A program made the translations under genes and the position numbers. 64,000 nt of DNA from Ochrobactrum teleogrylli. GTDB lineage: Bacteria; Pseudomonadota; Alphaproteobacteria; Rhizobiales; Rhizobiaceae. Shown piece after piece: positions 23,170 through 35,283 of the stretch. The stretch's first letter is position 1. Each line of letters starts with the position of its first letter. The stretch is taken from contig NZ_VEWL01000001.1 in the NCBI RefSeq assembly GCF_006376685.1, forward strand, positions 248,001 to 312,000, read 5' to 3'. The notes under the pieces were generated by a model. That model was not told where the DNA came from. It worked only from the letters and a program-made list of their open reading frames with translations, and searched no databases.

Positions 23170-24594
23170 TCAATGCGCGATCATGACATGGCGCACGGCA
23201 GTATAGTCCTCAAGCGCATAGATCGACATGTCCTTGCCATAGCCGGATTGTTTCAACCCGCCATGCGGCATTTCATTGGTCAGCATGAAATGGGTGTTGA
23301 TCCAGGTGCAGCCATATTGCAGGCGGGCTGCAGTCTGCATGCCCTTGCTGACATCTTTGGTCCACACCGACGAGGCAAGACCATAATCGCTGTCGTTCGC
23401 CCATTGCACGGCTTCATCGACATCGCTGAAGCGCGTGACCGAAACAACCGGACCGAAGACTTCGCGGCGCACGATTTCATCATCCTGCGTTGCTCCGGCA
23501 ATCACGGTCGGCTCGAAGAAGAAGCCGTTGGCGCCCGATGTCTTGCCGCCGGTCGTCACCTCGATATGCTTATGCTCGCGGGCGCGGGCGACAAAACTCT
23601 CGACACGATCCCGCTGACGGCGGGAAATGAGTGGTCCGATCTCGTTCTGGCTGTCATCTTCCAGATTGTAGCGGATGCTGGAAACGGCGGATGACAAGTC
23701 AGCGACGAAACGATCATAGATGCGCGCATCGGCATAGATGCGGCAGGCGGCGGTGCAGTCCTGACCGGCATTGTAATAGCCGAAGGTGCGAATGCCGTTG
23801 ACGACAGCTTCCACATCCGCATCGTCAAAGACGATGACCGGCGCCTTGCCGCCAAGTTCCAGATGGGTGCGCTTCACGCTCTTGGCTGCCGCCTGCAAGA
23901 CCTTCTTGCCGGTTGCGACGTCCCCAGTGATCGACACCATATCGACACGCGGATGATTGATCAGCGCGTTGCCGACCGTTTCACCACGTCCCAACACGAT
24001 ATTGACGACACCCTCCGGCAGAATATCCGCCAGTAGCCTGGCCATTTTCAGCGCGGTCAGCGGAGTCTGTTCGGATGGTTTGAAGACAACCGTATTACCG
24101 CCCGCAATGGCTGGCGCCAGTTTCCACGCCATCATCATCAGCGGATAGTTCCACGGGGCGATGGAGCCGATGATGCCGACCGGATCGCGGCGGATCATAG
24201 ACGTGTGGTTCGGCAAATATTCGGCGGCAATCGGTCCGTGGAGATTGCGCACCGCGCCTGCAAAGAAGCGGTAACAATCGACAATGGCCGGAATCTCGTC
24301 ATTGATGACGGCGTTGATCGGTTTGCCGCAATTAAGCGCTTCCAGTGTGGCAAAGGCCTCCGCATCGCGCTCAATCGCATCGGCAATCTTGAGAAGGTAG
24401 TTGGAACGTTCGCCGGGCGTGGTGCGCGACCAGCTTTTGAACGCCTTGTCGGCGGCGCTGACTGCGGCATCGACCTGCGCCAGCGAGGCTTCCGGCAGTT
24501 TGAGAACGGTCTCGCCGGTCTTGGGATTGAGGACGTTTTCCTCGGTTTCCGTGCCAGCTTCAAAGCGCGAGCCAATCAGCATTTCGGTGTTCAT
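23170..24594 (-). CDS. patD: 4-Aminobutyraldehyde dehydrogenase (PatD/YdcW type)
   Basis: A 474-residue NAD-dependent aldehyde dehydrogenase, the same length as E. coli PatD. The catalytic glutamate ([10 protein letters not shown]) and cysteine ([11 protein letters not shown]) are present. ATG 24594 is chosen because GGGAGAACG lies just upstream; the longer frame from 24642 has no SD. As the last gene of a ydcSTUV-like importer operon it should oxidise 4-aminobutyraldehyde from putrescine to 4-aminobutyrate. The aminotransferase that would supply the aldehyde could be the class III enzyme at 43481. Confidence 0.88.
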
Positions 24595-24610
24595 ATCGTT
24601 CTCCCTTGTG

Positions 24611-25426
24611 TCATTTCCCGTCACCGGCGACCTGATCGCCATCGCGGGTGAGATAGTAGGCGGCGAGGATGGGCAGGAAGGTCACCAGAACCACCACCAT
24701 GGCCACCACATTGGTGACGGGGCGCTGTCGTGGCCGGATCAGTTCCTGAAGCATCCAGATTGGCAGGGTCATCTGCTGGCCGCCGGTAAATGTGGTGACG
24801 ATCACTTCGTCGAAAGACAGTGCAAAGGCGAGCATGCCGCCTGCGAGCAAGGCCGTTCCGATATTCGGCAGGATCACATAGCGGAAGGTCTGGAACCCGT
24901 TTGCGCCAAGATCCATTGAGGCTTCGATCAGCGAACCGGAAGTGCGTCGAAAGCGGGCCACGGCATTGTTGTAGACGACCACCACGCAGAAGGTGGCGTG
25001 ACCAAGCACAATGGTCCACATCGAAAACGGAATGTCGAACAGCGAGAAGGCCGAGCGCAAGGCAATGCCGGTGACAACGCCGGGCAGCGCGATGGGCAGG
25101 ATGACCAGCAGCGAAATGCTCTCGCGTCCGAAGAAGTGGGTTCGGCTGACGGCAGCGGCGCAGAGCGTACCAAGCACGAGCGCAATCAGGGTCGCAATCG
25201 TGGCCACCTGCACGGAAAGCGCAAGCGACGACCACACATCGGCACGGTTCCATGTCACGGCGAACCATTGCAGTGTGAAGCCCGGCGGCGGCCATTGATA
25301 GCTTTTCTCTTCCGTCGTGAAGGCATAGACGAAGATCAGCAGGATCGGCAGATGCAGGAAGGCGAGGCCCAGTCCGGCAGCAAGCTTCAATCCGAAGGAA
25401 GCGCGGTTGTTGCGATCAGAGCGCAT
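24611..25426 (-). CDS. ydcV: Polyamine-type ABC permease (YdcV/PotC-like)
   Basis: A 271-residue permease with about six membrane helices and the EAA-like loop [23 protein letters not shown] 25426 overlaps the end of the preceding permease by 11 bp and has a GGGG stretch before it. PotC-type subunits pair with PotB-type subunits to import putrescine or spermidine. Confidence 0.87.
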
Positions 25427-26408
25427 CGAAAGCCCCCTGTTTCTTGGCGATCCAAAGATAGATGGCCATGATGACGATCGGCACGACGGAGAAGGCAGCA
25501 GCGAGCGGCACATTGCCTGCCGTTCCCTGCTGGGTATAGACGGCTTGTCCGATGAACAGGCGCGACGAGCCGATGATCTGCGGAATGATGTAATCGCCGA
25601 GTGTCAGCGAAAAGGTGAAGATCGACCCCGCGATGATACCCGGCATGGCGAGCGGCATCAGCACGGTTCGGAAGGTTTGCGCAGGCGTTGCTCCGAGGTC
25701 GGACGAGGCTTCCACCAGATTGCCCGGCACACGCTCCAGCGCCGCCTGTGTCGGCAGGATCATATAGGGCAGCCAGATATAGACAAAGACGATGAAGGTG
25801 CCGAGATAACTGACCGACAGTGAATTGCCGCCGATGACCGGCAGAGACAGGATGCCGTCGAGCAGCCAGGACAGGTGCAGTTTCGCGAATATCCAGGTCA
25901 GGATGCCTTCCTTGGCAAGGATCAGCTTCCACGCATAGACCTTAACCAGATAGCTCGACCAGAGCGGCAGCATGATGCCGAGATAGAACAGTGCTTTCCA
26001 GCGGCCACGGGCATAGCGGGCGGCATAATAGGCGATGGGAAAGGCGACGAAAGCAGACGCAACCGTCACCAGTGCGGCCATTGATACGGTGCGGATGATG
26101 ATGTCGAGATTGGCGGAATTTAAAAGCTGCGCATAGGTCGCGAGCGTGAAATTATAGTCGATCAGCCCGGAAAAATCGTCGACCGAGAAGAAGCTCTGCA
26201 AGAGCAGCGCGATCAGCGAACCGATATAGATAATGCCCAGCCACAGAAGCGGCGGCGTGAGCATGAGAAACAGCAGCATCCCCGGACGACGCCAGAAAAG
26301 GTCGGAGAGACGACCAAGTATCCCGCCGTGCTGCGGCAGGATGGAGGTCGGATTGGCCCCGGAATTTGCTCCGGAGTTTCCGAGTGTGGAAGCCTGCGCG
26401 CCGCTCAT
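25416..26408 (-). CDS. ydcU: Polyamine-type ABC permease (YdcU/PotB-like)
   Basis: A 330-residue permease with a polar N-terminal extension of about 40 residues, six membrane helices and the loop [20 protein letters not shown]. It overlaps the ATPase gene by ATGA and the next permease by 11 bp, showing tight coupling within the operon. Confidence 0.87.
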
Positions 26409-27403
26409 GCTGCCTGATCCATGTAATGAACGTCACCCGGATTCCAGACGATGCGGATATCCGATCCCGTCTCGGGAACACTTGCACCTGCGGGCAGCAT
26501 GACATGCAATCTGGCACCTTCGGCTTCAACCCCGAGACGTGTGGCGGAGCCGAGAAAGCTGGCGGTTTCGATCCGCGCTGCAACGCCGACCTTGTCGCCT
26601 TTATCTGCAAGGCGAATGGATTCCGGCCGGAGGCTGGCCCAGCGGCGCTCGCCGCCAAATGCGGCCATGATTTCCGGTGCGACGACATTGGAAGAGCCGA
26701 CAAAATCCGCAACGAAACGGGTCTGGGGACGATTATAGATTTCCTGCGGTGTTCCGGCCTGAACGATGCGGCCATTGTTGAAGACTGCGATGCGGTCCGC
26801 CATGGACAGTGCTTCGCCCTGATCGTGGGTCACGAAGACGAAGGTGATGCCGAGCGCCTTTTGCAGGCTCTTGAGCTCTTCCTGCATCTGTTCGCGCAGT
26901 TTGAGGTCAAGCGCGCCGAGCGGCTCATCGAGAAGTAGCACTTTCGGCTTGTTGACGAGGGCGCGCGCCAGCGCGACGCGCTGCCGCTGCCCGCCGGAAA
27001 GCTGGCTTGGCTTGCGGGCGCCATAGCCGGGCAGCTTGACCAGTTCGAGCATTTCCTCGGCGGCGCGGTGGCGTTCAGCCTTTCCGGCACCCCGCACCAT
27101 CAGCCCATAGGCCACATTGTCCAGAATGCTAAGATGCGGAAACAGCGCATAATCCTGAAAAACCGTGTTGACGTTGCGCCGATAGGGCGGCACGCCACCG
27201 GCGCTTTCGCCAAAAATCTCTATTGTTCCGTTGGTCGGCTGTTCGAAGCCCGCGATCAACCGTAGGCAGGTCGTCTTGCCGGAACCGGAAGGGCCGAGCA
27301 TGGCAAAGAACTCGCCGGGCGCGATGGTCAGGTTGACGTGATCGACGGCCCGGACTTCGCCGAAGTGCCGGCTCACATTTTCAAAACGAACTGCTGCTGT
27401 CAT
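26405..27403 (-). CDS. ydcT: Polyamine-type ABC ATPase (YdcT/PotA-like)
   Basis: A 332-residue ATPase with Walker A GPSGSGKTT, signature LSGGQRQRVALARAL, Walker B VLLLDEPLGALD and a C-terminal TOBE domain. ATG 27403 is preferred (GGTAGAG just upstream) over 27418. It belongs to the PotA class that powers spermidine/putrescine uptake. Confidence 0.88.
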   Translation of the reverse strand: MTAAVRFENVSRHFGEVRAVDHVNLTIAPGEFFAMLGPSGSGKTTCLRLIAGFEQPTNGTIEIFGESAGGVPPYRRNVNTVFQDYALFPHLSILDNVAYGLMVRGAGKAERHRAAEEMLELVKLPGYGARKPSQLSGGQRQRVALARALVNKPKVLLLDEPLGALDLKLREQMQEELKSLQKALGITFVFVTHDQGEALSMADRIAVFNNGRIVQAGTPQEIYNRPQTRFVADFVGSSNVVAPEIMAAFGGERRWASLRPESIRLADKGDKVGVAARIETASFLGSATRLGVEAEGARLHVMLPAGASVPETGSDIRIVWNPGDVHYMDQAA

Positions 27404-27458
27404 GGCTCTACCCATCATCGAGAACGCCAGCCTCCGTTGGCGGGCGCGTCTGTCCGTT

Positions 27459-27482
27459 CCCTTCCTTCAGCTGAAGGAAGGG
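27459..27482. other. Perfect 24-bp palindrome between ydcS and ydcT
   Basis: CCCTTCCTTCAG joined directly to its reverse complement, with no T-run afterwards. In the mRNA it makes a 3' hairpin on the binding-protein message, which usually protects it from decay and raises the binding-protein to permease ratio. Confidence 0.6.
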
Positions 27483-27509
27483 CAATGTTTGTAATTGTGA
27501 TGGTCGATG

Positions 27510-28670
27510 TCAGCGACCGCCAATGACGCCGATATAATCCGACACCCAGCGATGGTAGGGGACGCATTCGCCCTGGCTTTCGCATTTGGCCGTCGGTGTG
27601 CGCCAGAAGCTGATCTTGGCAAAATTATCGAAGCCGTTGGTCGCGCAGCCTTCGTCGGTCAGAAGCGCATTGCCCTTACAGGCTGCTGGAACGGACGGTA
27701 CGGCACCGAACCATGCGGCGGCGTCGCCCTGAACCTTTGGTTTTAACGAGTGCTCGAACCACTTATAGGCGCAATTGGGGTGCTCGCTATCCACGTGGAG
27801 CATGGTGGTATCGGCCCAACCGGTTGCGCCTTCTTCCGGGAAGGTCGAGCCGACCTTGGCATTTTCCGACTTCAGGAGATTGACCTGAAACGGCCATGAA
27901 CCGGAAGCCACGACGCCCTCATTCTTGAAGTCATCGATCTGGATCATCGCGTCATGCCAATAACGGCTGACGAGCTTGCGCTGCCCGCGCAGGAGATCGA
28001 GCGCTGCCTTATACTGGTCTTCGTTGAGTTCGTACGGGTTCTTGATGCCGAGTTCCGGCTTGTGCTTCATGAGATAAAGCGCGGCGTCGGCGATATAGAT
28101 CGGCCCGTCATAGGCCTGTACGCGGCCCTTGTTGGACTTGCCGTCCGGCAGGGTCTGTTCTTCGAACACCACGTTCCAGCTCTTCGGCGCTTCGCCCTTG
28201 AAGACATCGGTGTTGTACATCAGCACATTCGGACCCCAGAGATAGGGCACCCCGTAATGCACGCCTTTGACGGTGAACCAAGGCGCATTTTGCAGCCGTT
28301 CGTCCACCGTTTTCCAGCTTGGGATGAGGTCCGTATTGATCGGCTGCACGCGTTTGCCAGCCACGAGGCGTAACGAGGCGTCACCGGAAGCGGTGACGAG
28401 ATCAAAGCCGCCTTCATTCATCAGCGCCACCATTTCGTCGGAGGTGGCGGCAGTCTTCACACTGACCTTGCAGCCGGTTTCCTTTTCGAAATCGGTGACC
28501 CAGTCGTAGTTCTTGTCGGTTTCGCCACGTTCGATATAGCCCGCCCAGGCCACGATGCTCAGCGCGCCTTCACCTTCGCCAATTGCTTTCAGCGGTTCGG
28601 CGGCAATGGCCTGCGTGGCAAAGCTCGCAACAGCCATTAAAGCGGTACAGGATTGCAGAAATTTTCTCAT
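27510..28670 (-). CDS. ydcS: Polyamine-type ABC substrate-binding protein (YdcS/PotD-like)
   Basis: A 386-residue exported binding protein with a standard signal peptide (cleavage near residue 23, AIA). The mature part opens with LSIVAWAGYIERGETDKNYD and contains GFDLVTASGDASLRL and GVPYLWGPNVLMYNTDVF. These are the patterns of PotD/PotF proteins that hold polyamines through acidic and aromatic residues. It is the first gene of the five-gene operon ydcSTUV-patD. Confidence 0.87.
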   Translation of the reverse strand: MRKFLQSCTALMAVASFATQAIAAEPLKAIGEGEGALSIVAWAGYIERGETDKNYDWVTDFEKETGCKVSVKTAATSDEMVALMNEGGFDLVTASGDASLRLVAGKRVQPINTDLIPSWKTVDERLQNAPWFTVKGVHYGVPYLWGPNVLMYNTDVFKGEAPKSWNVVFEEQTLPDGKSNKGRVQAYDGPIYIADAALYLMKHKPELGIKNPYELNEDQYKAALDLLRGQRKLVSRYWHDAMIQIDDFKNEGVVASGSWPFQVNLLKSENAKVGSTFPEEGATGWADTTMLHVDSEHPNCAYKWFEHSLKPKVQGDAAAWFGAVPSVPAACKGNALLTDEGCATNGFDNFAKISFWRTPTAKCESQGECVPYHRWVSDYIGVIGGR

Positions 28671-28799: not shown

Positions 28800-29708
28800 C
28801 TAACGCAGTCGGCCAGAACGCGCAGCCTCGGCAATGCCGATGAAGTCACGTGCGGATTGCGGCAGGCTCGATCCTTTTCGCCATGCCATACCAATCTGCA
28901 CGACGGGCAGCGATCCCGAAACATCGCGGCTTTCGATCCGGTCGCCTTCCAGCGACCAGGGGCGATAGACGAGATCGGGGAGGAGGGCTATGCCCGCGCC
29001 CGTGGCCACCAAACTGCGCACGGCTTCCACCGATCGCGTGCGGAAAGCCACATGCGGACGGGCACCGAGGGCGGCCAGAAGTTTGCCGGTATTTTCCTCG
29101 ATTTCGTCAACCGTCAGCATGATCAGCGGTTCCTTCGCGATATCACTGACTGAAATGCTGTCGATGGAGACGAGCTCGTGCCCGAGCGGCAGCCACAACC
29201 GATAGGGCGAGGTTTCGAGAATTTCCGCATGTAGCGCCATGCGGTCACGCAGGTTTGAAATCACCATCACCGCCACGTCCAGCTCACCGCCGACAAGCAG
29301 ATGTTCCAGATAGGAACCATTGTCTTCGATGGCGCTGATTTCGACGCCCGGAAAGGCGCGGCGATAGCGGGCGAGCAGGTCGGACAGGACGTAGCCAGCG
29401 ACCAGCGATGTTACGCCAAGATTGAGCTTGCCCTTTTCCTGAATGCGCTGATCGACGAAAGAGCGGCGGGCATCCGAAACGCCGGTCAGAATCTTGGTGG
29501 CGTGGCGCAGAAACTGATGGCCGTTATGTGTCACCGTCAGGCCGCGGGGATGGCGCTCGAAAAGCTCGACATTCAGGTCGGTTTCCAGCTCCTTGATCGC
29601 CTCCGTGACAGAAGACTGCGAAATTGACAATTTTTGCGCCGCACGGGTGATCGACCCTTGCTCCGCAACTGCAACGAAATACTGTAACTGCCTTAATGTA
29701 AACGCCAT
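28800..29708 (-). CDS. LysR-family regulator, probably of the polyamine operon
   Basis: A 302-residue LysR-type regulator (HTH AAQKLSISQSSVTEAIKELE, effector domain from about 90). It lies on the same strand upstream of ydcS with a 129-bp gap. This arrangement and the absence of any other regulator suggest that it controls polyamine uptake and oxidation. A divergent target is not apparent, as the next plus-strand gene is the synthetase at 30007, 298 bp away. Confidence 0.83.
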   Translation of the reverse strand: MAFTLRQLQYFVAVAEQGSITRAAQKLSISQSSVTEAIKELETDLNVELFERHPRGLTVTHNGHQFLRHATKILTGVSDARRSFVDQRIQEKGKLNLGVTSLVAGYVLSDLLARYRRAFPGVEISAIEDNGSYLEHLLVGGELDVAVMVISNLRDRMALHAEILETSPYRLWLPLGHELVSIDSISVSDIAKEPLIMLTVDEIEENTGKLLAALGARPHVAFRTRSVEAVRSLVATGAGIALLPDLVYRPWSLEGDRIESRDVSGSLPVVQIGMAWRKGSSLPQSARDFIGIAEAARSGRLR

Positions 29709-30006: not shown

Positions 30007-33000
30007 ATGAATTATGAAAATCGTGGCGCTGGACACGGCGAAGCCGCAGCGACGACAGGCGTAAATGGTCTGCCCATAGACGATGCGCAGGGAAAAAAGG
30101 CGCTGGGCAAGGCGGGTCTTGGGGCTGCTCGCGAGCAGATCCTGACAGGTGCTGATTTCGCTGACCCCGGAAAACCGGGCGAACGGCTGGACCTCTTTTT
30201 CGAAGAACTGGCCGACAGATTTTCGGATTCGGTTGCCGTTGTTTCAGATGGACGCAACTGGACCTATCGGGAACTCGACAACCGCGCCAACCAGTTTGCG
30301 CGTCTGCTGATCGAACGCGGTGTTCATCCTGGCGACCGTATCGGCCTGCTGCTCGACCGTTCTGCCGACACGTATATCGCGCTGCTCGCCGTCATGAAGG
30401 CGGGCGCGGCCTATGTGCCACTGGCGACCGCATTTCCGGAAGATCGCATGGCCCTTATCATCGAGGATGCCAATGTAAAACTTGTCATTTCGCTAGAGGC
30501 CTATACGGCCCGCGTCGAACAGATGCCCGTGCCGCATGTGCTGATCGACGGGGCGGGCGCTGAAATTTCAAAGCAGTCCGACGCGCCACTGGACAAGGCT
30601 GCAAGGGCCGCAAATCCGGATCAGATTTGCTATATTCTCTATACGTCTGGCACGACCGGCAGGCCAAAAGGCGTCGCCATCCTGCATCAGAGCTTCTGCA
30701 ACTTCCTGCGTGTCGCGGCGATGTCCTATGGCTACAGGCCGGGCGACCGTGTTTATCACGGCATGACCATCGCCTTCGATTTTTCGGCGGAAGAATATTG
30801 GGTGCCGTTTACGGCAGGCGCGACCGTAGTGCCCGCCCCGGGGCCGATGACGCTGGTGGGCGAAGAACTCGCGGATTTCCTGCGGAAGAATGACATCAAC
30901 TGCATGGCGTGCAGCCCAACGCTTTTGTCTTCCATCGAAACCGATGTGCCGAAGCTGCGCCTGCTGATGGTGGGCGGCGAAGCCTGTCCGCTCAATTTGG
31001 TGGCGCGCTGGACAAAGCCGGGACGCCTGCTTCTCAATACTTACGGGCCCACGGAAGCGACCGTCACGGCAACCATGGGCGTTCTGACGCCCGACAAGCC
31101 AGTGACCATCGGTGCGCCGTTGCCGACCTATTCGATAGTCATCATCGAACCGACCGAGCCGAAGCTGACCGACCCGGATCAACTGGGCGAAATCGGCATC
31201 GCCGGTATCGGCCTCGCGGTCGGTTATCTCAACCGGCAGGATTTGACCGACCAGAAATTCATTCCTGATTTCATCGGTCTGCCTAACAATCCGTCAGCAC
31301 GCATCTATCGCACCGGCGATCTGGGGCGCATTAATGCTGCGGGCGAGATCGAGTATCATGGGCGTATCGACACGCAGGTGAAGATTCGCGGCTACCGCAT
31401 CGAGCTTGGCGAGATCGAAGCCGTTCTGCTCGATCAGCCCGGCGTTGCGCAGGCTGCCGTCACCACCTGGGAAATCGAGCCGGGTCGTGTCGAACTGGTC
31501 GCCTATTATGCGCCGAAGTCGGGCGTGCCACCGCTGCAGCGTGCCGATATTGCGCGCGAGCTGAAGCGACGTTTGCCGTCCTATATGGTCCCGGCCTATC
31601 TCGAAGAGCTGGACGCCATTCCAATGACGGTCTCCAACAAGGCCGATCTGAAGCGCCTGCCAAAGCCGACCAATGTGCGCCTTTCGGCGGAGCGCGAAAT
31701 CGTCCCGCCGAGCAATGACGATCAGCGCTTCATGGCGGACGCGCTGGCCGCAGTGCTTAATCTGGATGAAGTTTCGGTCGAGGATCATTTCTTCGATGAT
31801 CTGGGCGCCAATTCGCTGCTGATGGCGCGGTTTTGCGCCCGCGTGCGTACAGCGCAGGGTTGGGAAACGGCGTCGATGCGGGATATCTACCTGCATCCGA
31901 CCATCGCAAGTCTGGCGACGCATCTGCACGCGCCGCAGCAGAAGACCGCGGCCACGGTTGAGCGTCAGCTCACCCACAAGGCATCGAATTTTGCTTACTG
32001 GACCTGCGGCGCTGCACAGCTCGCCTTCTATGCGGTCTATGCCTATATCGGGCTGGTTTTCTTCGATGGCGGTCTCGACTGGGTCTATGACGCGCTCGAC
32101 AACCCGCTTCAGCTCTATTTCCGATGCGTTGTTCTCGCTGGGGCAAGCTTCTTCGCGATGACGGGCTTTGCCATCGCTGCGAAATGGCTGCTGATCGGGC
32201 GCTGGAAGACAGAAAGCTTTCCAATCTGGGGGCTGCGCTATTACCGCTTCTGGGTGGTGAAGACCTTGATCCGCACCGCGCCGGTGGTGCTGTTCCGCGG
32301 CAATCCGCTCTATAGCCTCTATCTGCGGCTGCTCGGTGCAAAGCTTGGCCGCAACACGGCCATCGAATGCCGGGCAATTCCGGTTTGCACCGATCTGATT
32401 TCCATTGGCGAGAATTCCATTTTGCGCCGCGAATCCAACATTCTCGGCTTTACGGCTGAAAGCGGCTATATCCATACGGGCACGATCACCATTGGTGACG
32501 GCGCTTTTGTGGGCGTTGGTTCGACCATCGATATCGACACCAAAATCGGCAATGGCGCGCAGCTTGGCCATGCGTCGTCGTTGCAGCGTGGCCAGAGCAT
32601 CCCCGATGGTGAACATTGGCATGGGTCGCCCGCAGCGCCCACTACTGCGGATTATTGCAAGGTGCGCAGCATTACGCTGTCGAAAACCCGCCGTATCATG
32701 TTCGAGATCGTGCAGCTTGTCGGGCTGTTCATGCTGGTCACGCCGTTCCCTTTACTGTTCCATAGCTACTGGCAAAATGTCAGCGACGATTATCAGGAAA
32801 CCATCGGCATCGTGGCCATCGGCACGACCGTTACGCTATTCGGCGTGCTGGCAACCTCGTTTATTGCTGCGGTTGCCGTGCCGCGACTGGCCAGCCTGTT
32901 TCTGAAGCCAAACCGCACCTATACGCTTTACGGCTTCCATTACTGGCTGCAGTCGATGGTGGAACTGGCCAGCAATTCGCGTCTTCTCAATCTGCTGTTC

Positions 33001-34179
33001 GGCGATAGTTCTGCCGTCGTGCACTATATCCGGGCCATCGGCTGGAAGCTCAACAAGGTGGTCCAGACCGGGTCCAATTTCGGCACCAACCAGCAGCATG
33101 AAAACCCGCTTCTGTGCGAAATCGGCAGCCAGACCATGGTGTCGGATGGTCTGTTTATGATCAACACGCACAAGTCGGCGGCGACATTCCGGCTGGAGCA
33201 TACCAAGGTCGGCGAGCGGAACTATTTCGGCAATAATATCTTCTATCCGTCCGACGGACGGACCGGGGATAACTGTCTGCTCGGCACCAAGGTTATGGTG
33301 CCGATCGAGGGGCCTATGCGCGAGAATGTCGGGCTTCTGGGTTCGCCCTGCTTTGAAATTCCGCGCATGGTCAATCGCGACAAGGAACTGATCGCCAATA
33401 TTGAGGAGGAGGACCGCCTGCGCCGCTTGCGCCGCAAGAACTTCCACAATTTCCGCACCGGACTGATGTTCCTGGCGGAGCAATGGCTGATGCTGTTTGC
33501 AACGCTGGCGATCTGGGACCGTGCGCTGAACTATTATGACGACTGGAAGTACAACGCGCTGTTTGTGGCCGTGGTTCTGACGGCGGGCATTGCAATACCG
33601 TTCTATATCTTCATCGAAAGGCTCTCGCTCGGCTTCGGCAGACTGAAACCGCGTATGACGACGATCTATGATGAAGCTTTCTGGCGGCATGAGCGCCATT
33701 GGAAACTGTCGGATTCGCCGATCACGCAGCTTTTCGCCGGAACGCCGTTCCGTCCGATGATTCTGCGCTGCCTTGGCGTGAAGGTCGGTCGCCGCGTCTA
33801 TGACGGCGGCGCCAATCTGACCGAACGTTCGCTGGTGGAAATCGGCGACGATGCAACCTTGAATGAAGGTTGTGTGATCCAGCCGCATTCGCTGGAGGAG
33901 GGTGCTTTCAAGTCCGACTTCATCCGCATCGGCAATGGCTGCACGCTCGGACCATCGGCATTCGTCCATTATGGCGTCGTCATGGGCGACGGCTCTATCG
34001 TTGATGTGGATTCCTTTGTCATGAAGGGTGAGGTGCTTGAGCCTTATTCCGTCTGGCGTGGTAATCCGGCCAAGCTCAACCGTTTCGTCGTCCCGGTGAC
34101 GAAGGATGGGACGGTGCTGGCCAATGTCAAACAGGCGGCAGGTTCTGTCGCTCTTCGCCCGGCGGAGGCAGCCATTTGA
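30007..34179 (+). CDS. Pls/PosA-family membrane non-ribosomal peptide synthetase
   Basis: A 1390-residue protein. Residues about 55-560 are an adenylation domain with YTSGTTGRPKG (212 on), FDFSAEEYW (Asp258), NTYGPTEAT (344 on), RGYRIELGEIE (461 on) and the late lysine 545. A carrier domain follows with LGANSLL (Ser603, the phosphopantetheine site). Then come three repeats of two membrane helices plus a left-handed beta-helix-like domain: about 664-880, 898-1120 and 1152-1375. There is no condensation or thioesterase domain. This is the plan of epsilon-poly-lysine synthetase Pls and delta-poly-ornithine synthetase PosA, where the membrane part ligates one amino acid repeatedly. A homopolymer of a basic amino acid is the likely product (inference). 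SD is weak. Confidence 0.9.
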   Translation: MNYENRGAGHGEAAATTGVNGLPIDDAQGKKALGKAGLGAAREQILTGADFADPGKPGERLDLFFEELADRFSDSVAVVSDGRNWTYRELDNRANQFARLLIERGVHPGDRIGLLLDRSADTYIALLAVMKAGAAYVPLATAFPEDRMALIIEDANVKLVISLEAYTARVEQMPVPHVLIDGAGAEISKQSDAPLDKAARAANPDQICYILYTSGTTGRPKGVAILHQSFCNFLRVAAMSYGYRPGDRVYHGMTIAFDFSAEEYWVPFTAGATVVPAPGPMTLVGEELADFLRKNDINCMACSPTLLSSIETDVPKLRLLMVGGEACPLNLVARWTKPGRLLLNTYGPTEATVTATMGVLTPDKPVTIGAPLPTYSIVIIEPTEPKLTDPDQLGEIGIAGIGLAVGYLNRQDLTDQKFIPDFIGLPNNPSARIYRTGDLGRINAAGEIEYHGRIDTQVKIRGYRIELGEIEAVLLDQPGVAQAAVTTWEIEPGRVELVAYYAPKSGVPPLQRADIARELKRRLPSYMVPAYLEELDAIPMTVSNKADLKRLPKPTNVRLSAEREIVPPSNDDQRFMADALAAVLNLDEVSVEDHFFDDLGANSLLMARFCARVRTAQGWETASMRDIYLHPTIASLATHLHAPQQKTAATVERQLTHKASNFAYWTCGAAQLAFYAVYAYIGLVFFDGGLDWVYDALDNPLQLYFRCVVLAGASFFAMTGFAIAAKWLLIGRWKTESFPIWGLRYYRFWVVKTLIRTAPVVLFRGNPLYSLYLRLLGAKLGRNTAIECRAIPVCTDLISIGENSILRRESNILGFTAESGYIHTGTITIGDGAFVGVGSTIDIDTKIGNGAQLGHASSLQRGQSIPDGEHWHGSPAAPTTADYCKVRSITLSKTRRIMFEIVQLVGLFMLVTPFPLLFHSYWQNVSDDYQETIGIVAIGTTVTLFGVLATSFIAAVAVPRLASLFLKPNRTYTLYGFHYWLQSMVELASNSRLLNLLFGDSSAVVHYIRAIGWKLNKVVQTGSNFGTNQQHENPLLCEIGSQTMVSDGLFMINTHKSAATFRLEHTKVGERNYFGNNIFYPSDGRTGDNCLLGTKVMVPIEGPMRENVGLLGSPCFEIPRMVNRDKELIANIEEEDRLRRLRRKNFHNFRTGLMFLAEQWLMLFATLAIWDRALNYYDDWKYNALFVAVVLTAGIAIPFYIFIERLSLGFGRLKPRMTTIYDEAFWRHERHWKLSDSPITQLFAGTPFRPMILRCLGVKVGRRVYDGGANLTERSLVEIGDDATLNEGCVIQPHSLEEGAFKSDFIRIGNGCTLGPSAFVHYGVVMGDGSIVDVDSFVMKGEVLEPYSVWRGNPAKLNRFVVPVTKDGTVLANVKQAAGSVALRPAEAAI

Positions 34180-34643
34180 CCGATCCTGACCCAAGTTCTG
34201 GCGCTGTCCGGCTTCAAACCGTAACCGACGACTTGCGGTCACGGGTTACCGCGCTGGAGCTTGCGCCGGGACAAGAAAATCTTGTTGCGGATAATGCAAG
34301 CTCGCTGGAAGAGGCGGACGAGGACGAGGATGCGCGTCCGCGCGCCGTGTTCGCCGGTGACATTCTGGTCGGGTTTCTCATGTATGACGCGACCAGCGAC
34401 GGCGACAATGCCCAGATCTACCGCTTCATGATCGACCGCGCTTTTCAGGGGTGGGGTTACGGAAAGGCCGCGTTGCAGCTGGTCTTGGCTGAGATCAGGG
34501 CGCTCGATCATATTCGTCGCATCTCGATCTGCTACGAACCGGAAAACGAAGGCGCGCGCCAGCTTTATGCTAAAGCGGGCTTTGTCGAAGATGGTCTCGA
34601 TGAAGATGGCGAGATGATCGCCCACCTCGATCTTCGGGACTGA
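34176..34643 (+). CDS. GNAT acetyltransferase coupled to the synthetase
   Basis: A 155-residue GNAT enzyme. The acetyl-CoA loop reads QGWGYGKAAL (91-100), preceded by IYRFMIDRAF and followed by CYEPENEGARQLYAKAGF. This pattern resembles diamine/polyamine acetyltransferases (BltD/PaiA-like). The start is TTG, overlapping the synthetase stop, with GGAGG 7 nt before it; no ATG is available before residue 69. A role in capping the free amine of the product, for self-protection or tailoring, is inferred from context. Confidence 0.78.
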   Translation: MTDPDPSSGAVRLQTVTDDLRSRVTALELAPGQENLVADNASSLEEADEDEDARPRAVFAGDILVGFLMYDATSDGDNAQIYRFMIDRAFQGWGYGKAALQLVLAEIRALDHIRRISICYEPENEGARQLYAKAGFVEDGLDEDGEMIAHLDLRD

Positions 34644-34653
34644 TGAAACGGAT

Positions 34654-35283
34654 ATGGCGCGCTTCGATCCATTGGAAATTGCGCTGAACCAAGCCATGCA
34701 GGCTGTCGCCGCGGCGGGCATTTCAACCGCTTGCCGGGTCATTCGGGACGGGGATGAAACCCGATTGCTGGCCGACGAAAATGCTACGCTTCCGACGCGA
34801 AATCCGGTTCGCCGTCGCGCCAGCGGGGCCGCCCGCCTTGCGGCGCGGGAATTGCTCATAAAGCATGGCAGAGGCGGTTTTGCGATTTTGCGGGGCAGCT
34901 CGGGCGAACCAATCTGGCCATCGGGCATTGTCGGGTCGCTCGCCCATGATGACGATATGGCTGTTGCTGCTGTTGCAAGCAGCGCCGATTTTCTTTCGGT
35001 CGGGATCGATGTGGAGCCGGCTATTGCGCTGCCGGAGGACATTGCCGCGCTGGTGAAGCAGCCAGGCGACCGCTTGCCTGAAGGTGCAGCCGATGCAGAT
35101 CGTATTCTTTTTTGCGCCAAAGAGGCGGTTTATAAGGCCGTCTATCCGCTGGACCGCGTGGTGCTGAACTATGACGACATCATTGTCGATCTTCAGCAGG
35201 GATATGCGCATACGACGACAGGCAGAATGGTTCGGGTCGTCTTTTGCCGTGCGCCGAAAATTATAGTGCTGGCCTATCTCTAA
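34654..35283 (+). CDS. 4'-Phosphopantetheinyl transferase (EntD type)
   Basis: A 209-residue Sfp/EntD superfamily protein. It shows the histidine motif GSLAHDDD (94 on), the magnesium motif GIDVEP (Asp119, Glu121) and FCAKEAVYK (Lys156, Glu157, Lys161). The enzyme moves phosphopantetheine from coenzyme A onto the serine of carrier domains. Its place 10 nt after the GNAT gene makes the synthetase carrier (Ser603) the obvious target. The fold is recognisable although the N-terminus is divergent. Confidence 0.85.
   Translation: MARFDPLEIALNQAMQAVAAAGISTACRVIRDGDETRLLADENATLPTRNPVRRRASGAARLAARELLIKHGRGGFAILRGSSGEPIWPSGIVGSLAHDDDMAVAAVASSADFLSVGIDVEPAIALPEDIAALVKQPGDRLPEGAADADRILFCAKEAVYKAVYPLDRVVLNYDDIIVDLQQGYAHTTTGRMVRVVFCRAPKIIVLAYL

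What the first reader, a model, noticed from the sequence alone, without database searches (positions are those of the whole stretch)
30007..35283. Pls/PosA-type poly-amino-acid synthetase operon in a Brucellaceae-like genome
Seen: one 1390-residue protein with adenylation domain, carrier (Ser603), then three units of two membrane helices plus a beta-helix-like domain, with no condensation or thioesterase domain. Known: this plan is that of epsilon-poly-L-lysine synthetase Pls (Streptomyces) and delta-poly-L-ornithine synthetase PosA (Acinetobacter). Inference: the locus makes a homopolymeric isopeptide not usually described for Brucellaceae. A surface-active polycation could affect envelope charge, competition or host interaction.
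Basis: partly seen in the sequence, partly recalled or inferred. Interest (0 to 1): 0.9.

Follow-up and report, generated by a model that had tools for sequence, protein, structure and literature searches.

The report
Polycation synthetase operon in Ochrobactrum-type Brucella
The locus is a real member of the enzyme family that makes chains of basic amino acids such as poly-lysine, but it sits on a branch of that family for which no tested enzyme was found here, with an amino-acid pocket unlike the tested ones, so it probably makes a different, still unidentified polymer.

Summary
Confirmed: 30007-34179 encodes a 1390-aa adenylation-carrier-membrane protein (carrier Ser603) without condensation or thioesterase domain. 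It matches TIGR02353 (Pls/PosA terminal domain) over all 695 positions, 849 bits, cut-off 423. A GNAT acetyltransferase and an Sfp-type phosphopantetheinyl transferase (PPTase) follow.

Corrected: the pocket is neither lysine- nor ornithine-type. It reads DFEAMGTVTK; all 91 aligned rows read DFEA[ML]GTVTK. The method recovered the published PosA code and an Ala-type Pls code. Phe at position 2 is reported for diaminopropionate/diaminobutyrate (Dap/Dab) synthetases. Relatives reading DFECLS[VA]VTK have a Dab transaminase gene beside them in 4 of 5 cases, one partial. Against simple transfer: only 3 of 22 genomes with the window-type enzyme have such a transaminase over cut-off, the window's own not among them, and Gly-Thr in the pocket resembles PosA. 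Dab and ornithine both stay open.

The terminal domain belongs to a separate class (23% identity to the Pls/PosA class; 100/100 support). The GNAT's best solved matches are named spermine/spermidine acetyltransferases. 11 of 35 genomes of the genus carry the synthetase.

The parts
30007..34179 (+). Pls/PosA-family NRPS-like synthetase, 1390 aa: adenylation (aa ~65-545), carrier (Ser603), terminal membrane/beta-helix-type domain (aa ~666-1355)
   Evidence: TIGR02353 849 bits, TIGR01733 406 bits; PF00501, PF13193, PF00550, PF00132; Ser603; hydropathy
34176..34643 (+). GNAT N-acetyltransferase, 155 aa, start overlaps the synthetase stop by 4 bases; nearest solved proteins are named spermine/spermidine acetyltransferases
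   Evidence: PF00583 48.6 bits; 9dsb E 1.7e-18 and 2fl4 E 3.8e-18, next match 2.8e-6; NCBIfam's best is RimI, 28.7 bits, under its cut-off of 86.4; found beside the synthetase in 58 of 79 loci
34654..35283 (+). Sfp-type 4'-phosphopantetheinyl transferase, 209 aa, to load the carrier Ser603
   Evidence: PF17837 63.6 bits, PF01648 31.4 bits; found beside the synthetase in 74 of 79 loci; of two PF01648 hits in the genome the other is in a 147-aa open frame
28800..29708 (-). LysR regulator, divergent from the synthetase; possible regulator only
   Evidence: PF00126, PF03466; this LysR (99% identity, divergent) is beside the synthetase only in the window and L004, L005, L006, L078, so the link is weak

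Best explanation
A membrane-bound, single-module NRPS-like synthetase that polymerises one short basic diamino acid. The PPTase puts the phosphopantetheine arm on Ser603. The adenylation domain activates a diamino acid and loads it on the carrier. The membrane/beta-helix domain joins loaded units to a growing chain through the side-chain amine, giving a cationic isopeptide oligomer. The GNAT acetylates free amines of the product, or an excess of monomer or polyamine, most likely as self-protection or capping. Monomer: 2,4-diaminobutyrate most likely (about 0.45), ornithine next (about 0.25), diaminopropionate or another basic amino acid for the rest. Shown: the domains, the family, the pocket residues and operon conservation. 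Inferred: polymerisation, the linkage, the monomer and the GNAT role.
For: Family match over the full terminal domain, with PosA-type and Pls controls scoring in the same range. Asp and Glu at pocket positions 1 and 3, which PMC10522769 gives as conserved in these synthetases and needed in PosA (passages and section 14), are present. DFEA[ML]GTVTK in 91 of 91 rows (some genomes may occur twice). Phe at position 2 is given there for PDAP/PDAB synthetases. In the adenylation tree the window's class falls with the DFE group (100/99), which includes a Streptomyces synthetase with a diaminobutyrate transaminase and an aspartate kinase next to it. DFECLS[VA]VTK relatives have EctB/Dat beside them in 4 of 5 cases. 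PPTase beside the synthetase in 74 of 79 loci, and no condensation domain was found in the genome, so the PPTase looks dedicated. The GNAT is nearest to polyamine acetyltransferases among solved proteins.
Against: No EctB/Dat over cut-off in the window's genome (196.7 of 401.6 bits for TIGR00709; 184.3 of 552.2 for TIGR02407), none in the 11 synthetase carriers of the genus, and only 3 of 22 window-type carriers in the wider family against 49 of 394 overall (one search scored at most four candidates a genome): so Dab supply is unexplained. No SbnA-type Dap enzyme over cut-off either. The pocket differs from the Dab-linked one at three to four of ten positions, and its Gly-Thr is as in PosA and Pls. 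The terminal domain is only about 23% identical to those of tested types, so polymerisation by this class is not shown. 'Spermine/spermidine acetyltransferase' is a depositors' name, and NCBIfam does not confirm it.
Confidence: 0.6

Rival explanations
1. It makes delta-poly-ornithine or epsilon-poly-lysine, as in PosA or Pls: the monomer is a housekeeping amino acid, so no dedicated monomer gene is needed.
For: No monomer gene in the operon or over cut-off in the genome. Pocket positions 6-7 are Gly-Thr and position 9 is Thr, close to PosA's Gly-Thr and Ser; Thr304 and Ser313 of PosA contact the delta-amine (PMC10522769 passages).
Against: Phe, not Met or Ala, at position 2, the position the authors tie to chain length; positions 4 and 5 are Ala and Met against His and Asn. 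The adenylation domain groups with the DFE group, not with PosA or Pls.
Confidence: 0.27
2. The class I terminal domain does not polymerise; it transfers carrier-bound amino acid onto an envelope or membrane acceptor, like an aminoacylation system of the Dlt kind.
For: Terminal domain deeply diverged (23.2% mean identity between the two classes, 33.5% within class II). Some relatives with this domain have one to three carriers and no adenylation domain (L094, L097, L098), so the domain is used outside the usual plan.
Against: The whole TIGR02353 profile is matched; in 18 rows of both classes 28 terminal columns are unchanged and 12 more have one exception, the unchanged ones including R747, D1047, N1076, Q1292, H1294 and E1342, which suggests shared chemistry.
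Confidence: 0.15
3. A silent or decaying relic without a product.
For: Patchy in the genus (11 of 35); no title in the listings points to a product.
Against: Open frame without stops in all 11 carrier genomes; pocket residues fixed while identity falls to about 68%; operon order kept.
Confidence: 0.05

Closest known systems
PosA, delta-poly-L-ornithine synthetase of Acinetobacter baumannii (PMC10522769; sequence used: L099, identified as PosA-type by species and by its code, not by its annotation)
   Same: Same domain order; TIGR02353 725 bits; Asp and Glu at pocket positions 1 and 3; Gly-Thr at 6-7
   Different: Adenylation domain 38% and terminal domain 21-24% identical; pocket DMEHNGTVSK; no GNAT or PPTase among the 6 annotated genes of the fetched 10-kb stretch (that gene table is incomplete by its makers' account)
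Pls, epsilon-poly-L-lysine synthetase (annotated Streptomyces copy L100)
   Same: Same domain order; TIGR02353 675 bits
   Different: Pocket DAESIGTVVK; terminal domain 23-24% identical; M1 metallopeptidase beside it, no GNAT or PPTase among the 7 annotated genes
PDAP and PDAB synthetases (poly-diaminopropionate, poly-diaminobutyrate)
   Same: Phe at pocket position 2, by the authors' statement in PMC10522769 (section 14)
   Different: The S. albulus PDAP pathway uses cysteine-synthase and ornithine-cyclodeaminase homologues (PMC4668381, abstract and passages), which are not in this operon; the full pocket codes of tested PDAP/PDAB synthetases were not available here
Dab-linked class I relatives: Skermanella mucosa pSM-2 (L095), G439 (L130), G483 (L131)
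   Same: Same terminal-domain class, 41-47% identity; adenylation domain 51-54%
   Different: EctB/Dat beside them (partial in G483), pocket DFECLS[VA]VTK; in Skermanella no GNAT or PPTase in the annotated flanks or by comparison
N-acetyltransferase self-resistance to cationic peptides: PamZ (PMC9054821), odilorhabdin locus (PMC8749412); start of abstract in the listing only
   Same: Acetyltransferase in a cationic-peptide gene cluster
   Different: No test here that this GNAT acts on the polymer, and its relation to PamZ was not compared

Membership tests
Pls/PosA family (TIGR02353) | Terminal domain matches the curated profile above cut-off | tested here: met
   849.4 bits, cut-off 423.1, positions 1-695 of 695
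Pls/PosA family (TIGR02353) | Adenylation domain, then carrier, then membrane domain; no condensation or thioesterase domain | tested here: met
   Pfam domains and order
Pls/PosA family (TIGR02353) | Six membrane helices in three pairs with three soluble C1-C3 regions | tested here: inconclusive
   Five clear hydrophobic stretches; the first expected one peaks at 1.16, near other bumps
Pls/PosA family (TIGR02353) | Left-handed beta-helices in C1-C3 | tested here: inconclusive
   Hexapeptide match in C3, pattern match in C1; structure job interrupted, then tool switched off
Pls/PosA family (TIGR02353) | Asp and Glu at pocket positions 1 and 3 | tested here: met
   D258, E262
Pls/PosA family (TIGR02353) | Makes a homopolymer through side-chain amines | not testable with these tools
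   Needs enzyme and product analysis
epsilon-poly-lysine synthetase (Pls proper) | Ala at pocket position 2; grouping with Pls | tested here: not met
   Phe259; apart from Pls in both trees
delta-poly-ornithine synthetase (PosA proper) | Pocket DMEHNGTVSK; grouping with PosA | tested here: not met
   DFEAMGTVTK; apart from PosA in both trees
Poly-diaminobutyrate synthetase (Dab-linked) | Phe at pocket position 2 | tested here: met
   Phe259
Poly-diaminobutyrate synthetase (Dab-linked) | Dab transaminase in the locus or genome | tested here: not met
   None over cut-off in the genome; 3 of 22 window-type carriers in the family have one
Poly-diaminopropionate synthetase | SbnA-type synthase with ornithine-cyclodeaminase homologue for Dap | tested here: inconclusive
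   No SbnA over cut-off among six hits; the best two are cysteine synthases; cyclodeaminase not searched

The most novel reading that the evidence does not exclude
The window belongs to a second class of polycation synthetases, untested as far as I found, spread through rhizobial genera and Ochrobactrum-type Brucella. A Dab-lineage adenylation module is joined to an anciently different (swapped or fast-evolving) polymerising domain, and its pocket has moved to another monomer. With its acetyltransferase it makes a polymer not among the known ones, for instance a partly acetylated or end-capped basic polymer acting at the cell envelope. Relatives that keep the domain but have one to three carriers in place of the adenylation domain would be a further variant, charged in trans.
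Probability: 0.35. Interest if true: 0.75.

Novelty: new variant of a known kind. Interest (0 to 1): 0.5.

Why it matters
In the passages I read, tested basic homopolymer synthetases come from actinomycetes, fungi (epsilon-poly-lysine) and Acinetobacter, and the natural role of these polymers is called unclear (PMC9606270, abstract start). A conserved operon in root-associated and opportunistic bacteria, with one fixed pocket, would let the monomer be found with one adenylation assay. It also offers a way to ask what the terminal domain does, because two deeply different classes share a small set of unchanged residues. For annotation it is a caution: the database name 'Pls/PosA family' covers a class in which I found nothing tested.

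Tried and rejected
Lysine product: rejected as first choice from the pocket. Domain swap as a proven event: not supported. The two terminal classes separate at 100/100 and the branch between them is very long (1.97 plus 0.83 changes per column with the long-branched row L122 left out), but holding class I together with the DFE-type class II rows is not rejected (p-AU 0.222), so fast evolution on one branch explains the data as well. Beta-lysine through the KamA-type gene downstream in Mesorhizobium loci (a cluster in 29 loci; one member, L012's, named): opposite strand, not in this operon, and the published beta-lysine pocket has Gly at position 2, so rejected. LysR as a conserved regulator: rejected. 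Sphingomonas GNAT/PPTase as the same pair: no similarity beyond chance to the window's. Promoter and terminator scans did not exceed shuffles. No tRNA in the window. The class-level search matched 10 of 385 genomes; apart from the window itself these are distant (27-33% identity, and one 117-residue piece at 40%). Literature: NAPAA with Ochrobactrum gave 2 papers and with Brucella 4, the four-term search with 15 listed, 'non-alpha poly-amino acids' with rhizobi 6, among them a Methylobacterium comparison; I saw listings only, and no title there is about such a product. One search was uninformative: none of its 15 listed papers held NAPAA.

Full report
WHERE IT IS. The window is part of a 4.76-Mb genome. 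Nearest relatives of the protein's terminal part with titled records are Ochrobactrum sp. Q0168 (97%), Brucella haematophila (96%), an untitled-genus Rhizobiales isolate AFS001111 (96%) and Ochrobactrum sp. RH2CCR150 (95%). I treat it as an Ochrobactrum-type member of the genus now named Brucella; the exact species is not known.

The 1390-aa frame, the adenylation and carrier domains, Ser603 and the lack of condensation and thioesterase domains are as described. TIGR02353 is matched end to end at 849.4 bits, cut-off 423.1. The same model gives 725 bits for an A. baumannii PosA-type protein, 675 for an annotated Streptomyces Pls and 548 for a Streptomyces synthetase with a Dab operon, so the window is not a marginal member. 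Five hydrophobic stretches are clear and the sixth is weak. The internal repeat is clear between units 1 and 3 and weak for unit 2.

THE OPERON. A GNAT (34176-34643) overlaps the synthetase stop by four bases, and an Sfp-type PPTase (34654-35283) follows. One scan returned 79 distinct loci (the best 80 of 93 matches). With thresholds of 40% identity and 900 bases, a PPTase of this family lies downstream in 74; with 45% and 300 bases, a GNAT of this family in 58. Both are present in 56, PPTase only in 18, GNAT only in 2 and neither in 3; three of the five without a PPTase end within 1.5 kb of the synthetase. The GNAT count is a lower bound, since frames under 90 aa and diverged copies are missed. 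The GNAT profile finds two proteins named spermine/spermidine acetyltransferase among solved proteins (E 1.7e-18 and 3.8e-18), and then nothing better than 2.8e-6; NCBIfam puts it nearest to RimI, far under the cut-off. The genome has two PF01648 hits, this one and one in a 147-aa open frame (AcpS type by its length, my inference), and no condensation domain was found. The PPTase therefore looks dedicated to this synthetase.

THE POCKET. I read the ten specificity positions by alignment, with anchors placed from recalled PheA numbering. The method returned DMEHNGTVSK for the A. baumannii protein, which is the published PosA code (PMC10522769, passages), and DAESIGTVVK for the Streptomyces Pls, with the Ala the same paper gives for Pls. 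The window reads DFEAMGTVTK. Of 91 rows (window, its own-genome copy, 10 genus genomes, 79 loci; some genomes may occur twice), 20 read DFEAMGTVTK and 71 DFEALGTVTK. Phyllobacterium sp. 628 differs by Ile at position 8. PMC10522769 states that PDAP/PDAB synthetases have Phe at position 2, PosA Met and Pls Ala, and links this to chain length (section 14). It lists DLEDIGTV[TVI]K for archaea, rhizobia, Methylobacterium and others as a code of unknown substrate (section 10). The Rhizobium sp. CCGE532 synthetase shows that code (DLEDIGTVVK), so rhizobia hold at least two kinds.

WHICH MONOMER. Five synthetases read DFECLS[VA]VTK. Four have a Dab transaminase gene beside them: Skermanella (EctB 604 bits, cut-off 552, directly upstream), Streptomyces NBC_01527 (annotated Dat family plus aspartate kinase), G439 (61% identical to the Skermanella EctB, directly downstream) and G483 (a 92-aa piece at the contig end, 41% over 69 aa). 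The fifth, Paenarthrobacter, has none in about 7 kb upstream and 9 kb downstream. These are not a blind sample: G439 was fetched because searches had shown the neighbouring genes. Still, Dab is the natural guess for the lineage. The window type breaks the link. Its genome has no EctB/Dat over cut-off. In the genus, 1 of 35 genomes has one, and that one lacks the synthetase. In the family, 24 of 394 genomes carry the terminal domain at E 1e-100 or better, 22 of them at 70-100% identity; of these 22 only G603, G660 and G685 have an EctB/Dat over cut-off, against 49 of 394 overall (only the top two and top four candidates a genome were scored). The pocket meanwhile has Gly-Thr at positions 6-7, as in PosA and Pls. 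Either Dab comes from another aminotransferase (six of the genome's were named, none as a Dab enzyme; L105 was not scanned), or the specificity has moved, ornithine being the obvious alternative. I cannot decide between these.

A SEPARATE CLASS. With 20 chosen representatives, adenylation domains are 41% identical between the window's class (8 rows) and the class of Pls and PosA (12 rows), hardly less than within the latter (42%). Terminal domains are 23% identical between classes and 33.5% within the latter. Both trees separate the classes (100/100 terminal, 98/97 adenylation). The adenylation tree places the window's class with the DFE group (100/99). The long branch lies in the terminal domain. 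Topology does not prove a swap: holding the DFE group together on the terminal tree is not rejected (p-AU 0.222). No tested enzyme that I found is on the window's side. In 18 rows of both classes 28 terminal columns are unchanged, R747, D1047, N1076, Q1292, H1294 and E1342 among them. They are candidates for shared catalysis; that is inference.

CONTEXT. Just upstream, on the other strand, lie a YdcS-like binding protein (652 bits, cut-off 725), a PotA-like ATPase (354 bits, cut-off 482), a permease with a second likely one, and an aldehyde dehydrogenase of the aminobutyraldehyde type (815 bits, cut-off 615): probably a putrescine uptake and breakdown set. The divergent LysR is beside the synthetase only in the window and four near relatives, so I read this as neighbourhood, not as part of the system.

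VERDICT. A member of a known family by name, but on a branch with no tested member found here, with a pocket that matches no published code I saw, and with a conserved acetyltransferase. No title about such a product in Ochrobactrum or Brucella turned up in the listings; those cover only the open library and do not prove absence.

Noticed in passing
L094:8404-11139, L097:8152-11256, L098:8650-11190 (plasmids of Streptomyces mirabilis, Arthrobacter sp. FW305-BF8, Streptomyces sp. CdTB01): Proteins as annotated with a full TIGR02353 terminal domain (752, 685 and 823 bits) but no adenylation domain; instead two, three and one carrier domains. They would have to be charged in trans.
   Followed up: partly
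L096:4622-9133 and L118:5241-9214 (Pseudonocardia plasmids): Adenylation domain under the TIGR01733 cut-off in L096 (264.7 of 317.4 bits), odd pocket (DLER-STVTP) and three carriers; in L118 the adenylation part is a separate, more diverged frame. Looks like decay towards the adenylation-less form.
   Followed up: partly
window 23170-28670 (-): Putrescine-type ABC transporter set (YdcS-like, PotA-like) with an aminobutyraldehyde-type dehydrogenase beside the polycation operon.
   Followed up: partly
L119:4177-9292 (Sphingomonas parapaucimobilis plasmid): A distant synthetase with PosA-like pocket DMEHNGTVTK also has a PPTase and a GNAT next to it, but neither resembles the window's: the pairing may have arisen more than once.
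   Followed up: partly
L120:4198-8286 and L127:4204-8286 (Rhodococcus plasmids); L132:3230-7183 (G110): Further pockets that match no code I saw in print: DFEYLGTVTK and DFEHSGTCSK.
   Followed up: no
L122:3922-7941 (Streptomyces sp. NBC_00648 plasmid): Pocket DSECYGGVTK, the same as the Bdellovibrionales enzyme that PMC10522769 reports to activate arginine (section 11).
   Followed up: no
L012:13702-14838 (-), L013:12374-13534 (-) and others (Mesorhizobium), about 1-2.5 kb downstream of the synthetase: Lysine-2,3-aminomutase-like gene (KamA family) in a cluster of 29 loci (L012's copy named); probably local gene order.
   Followed up: partly
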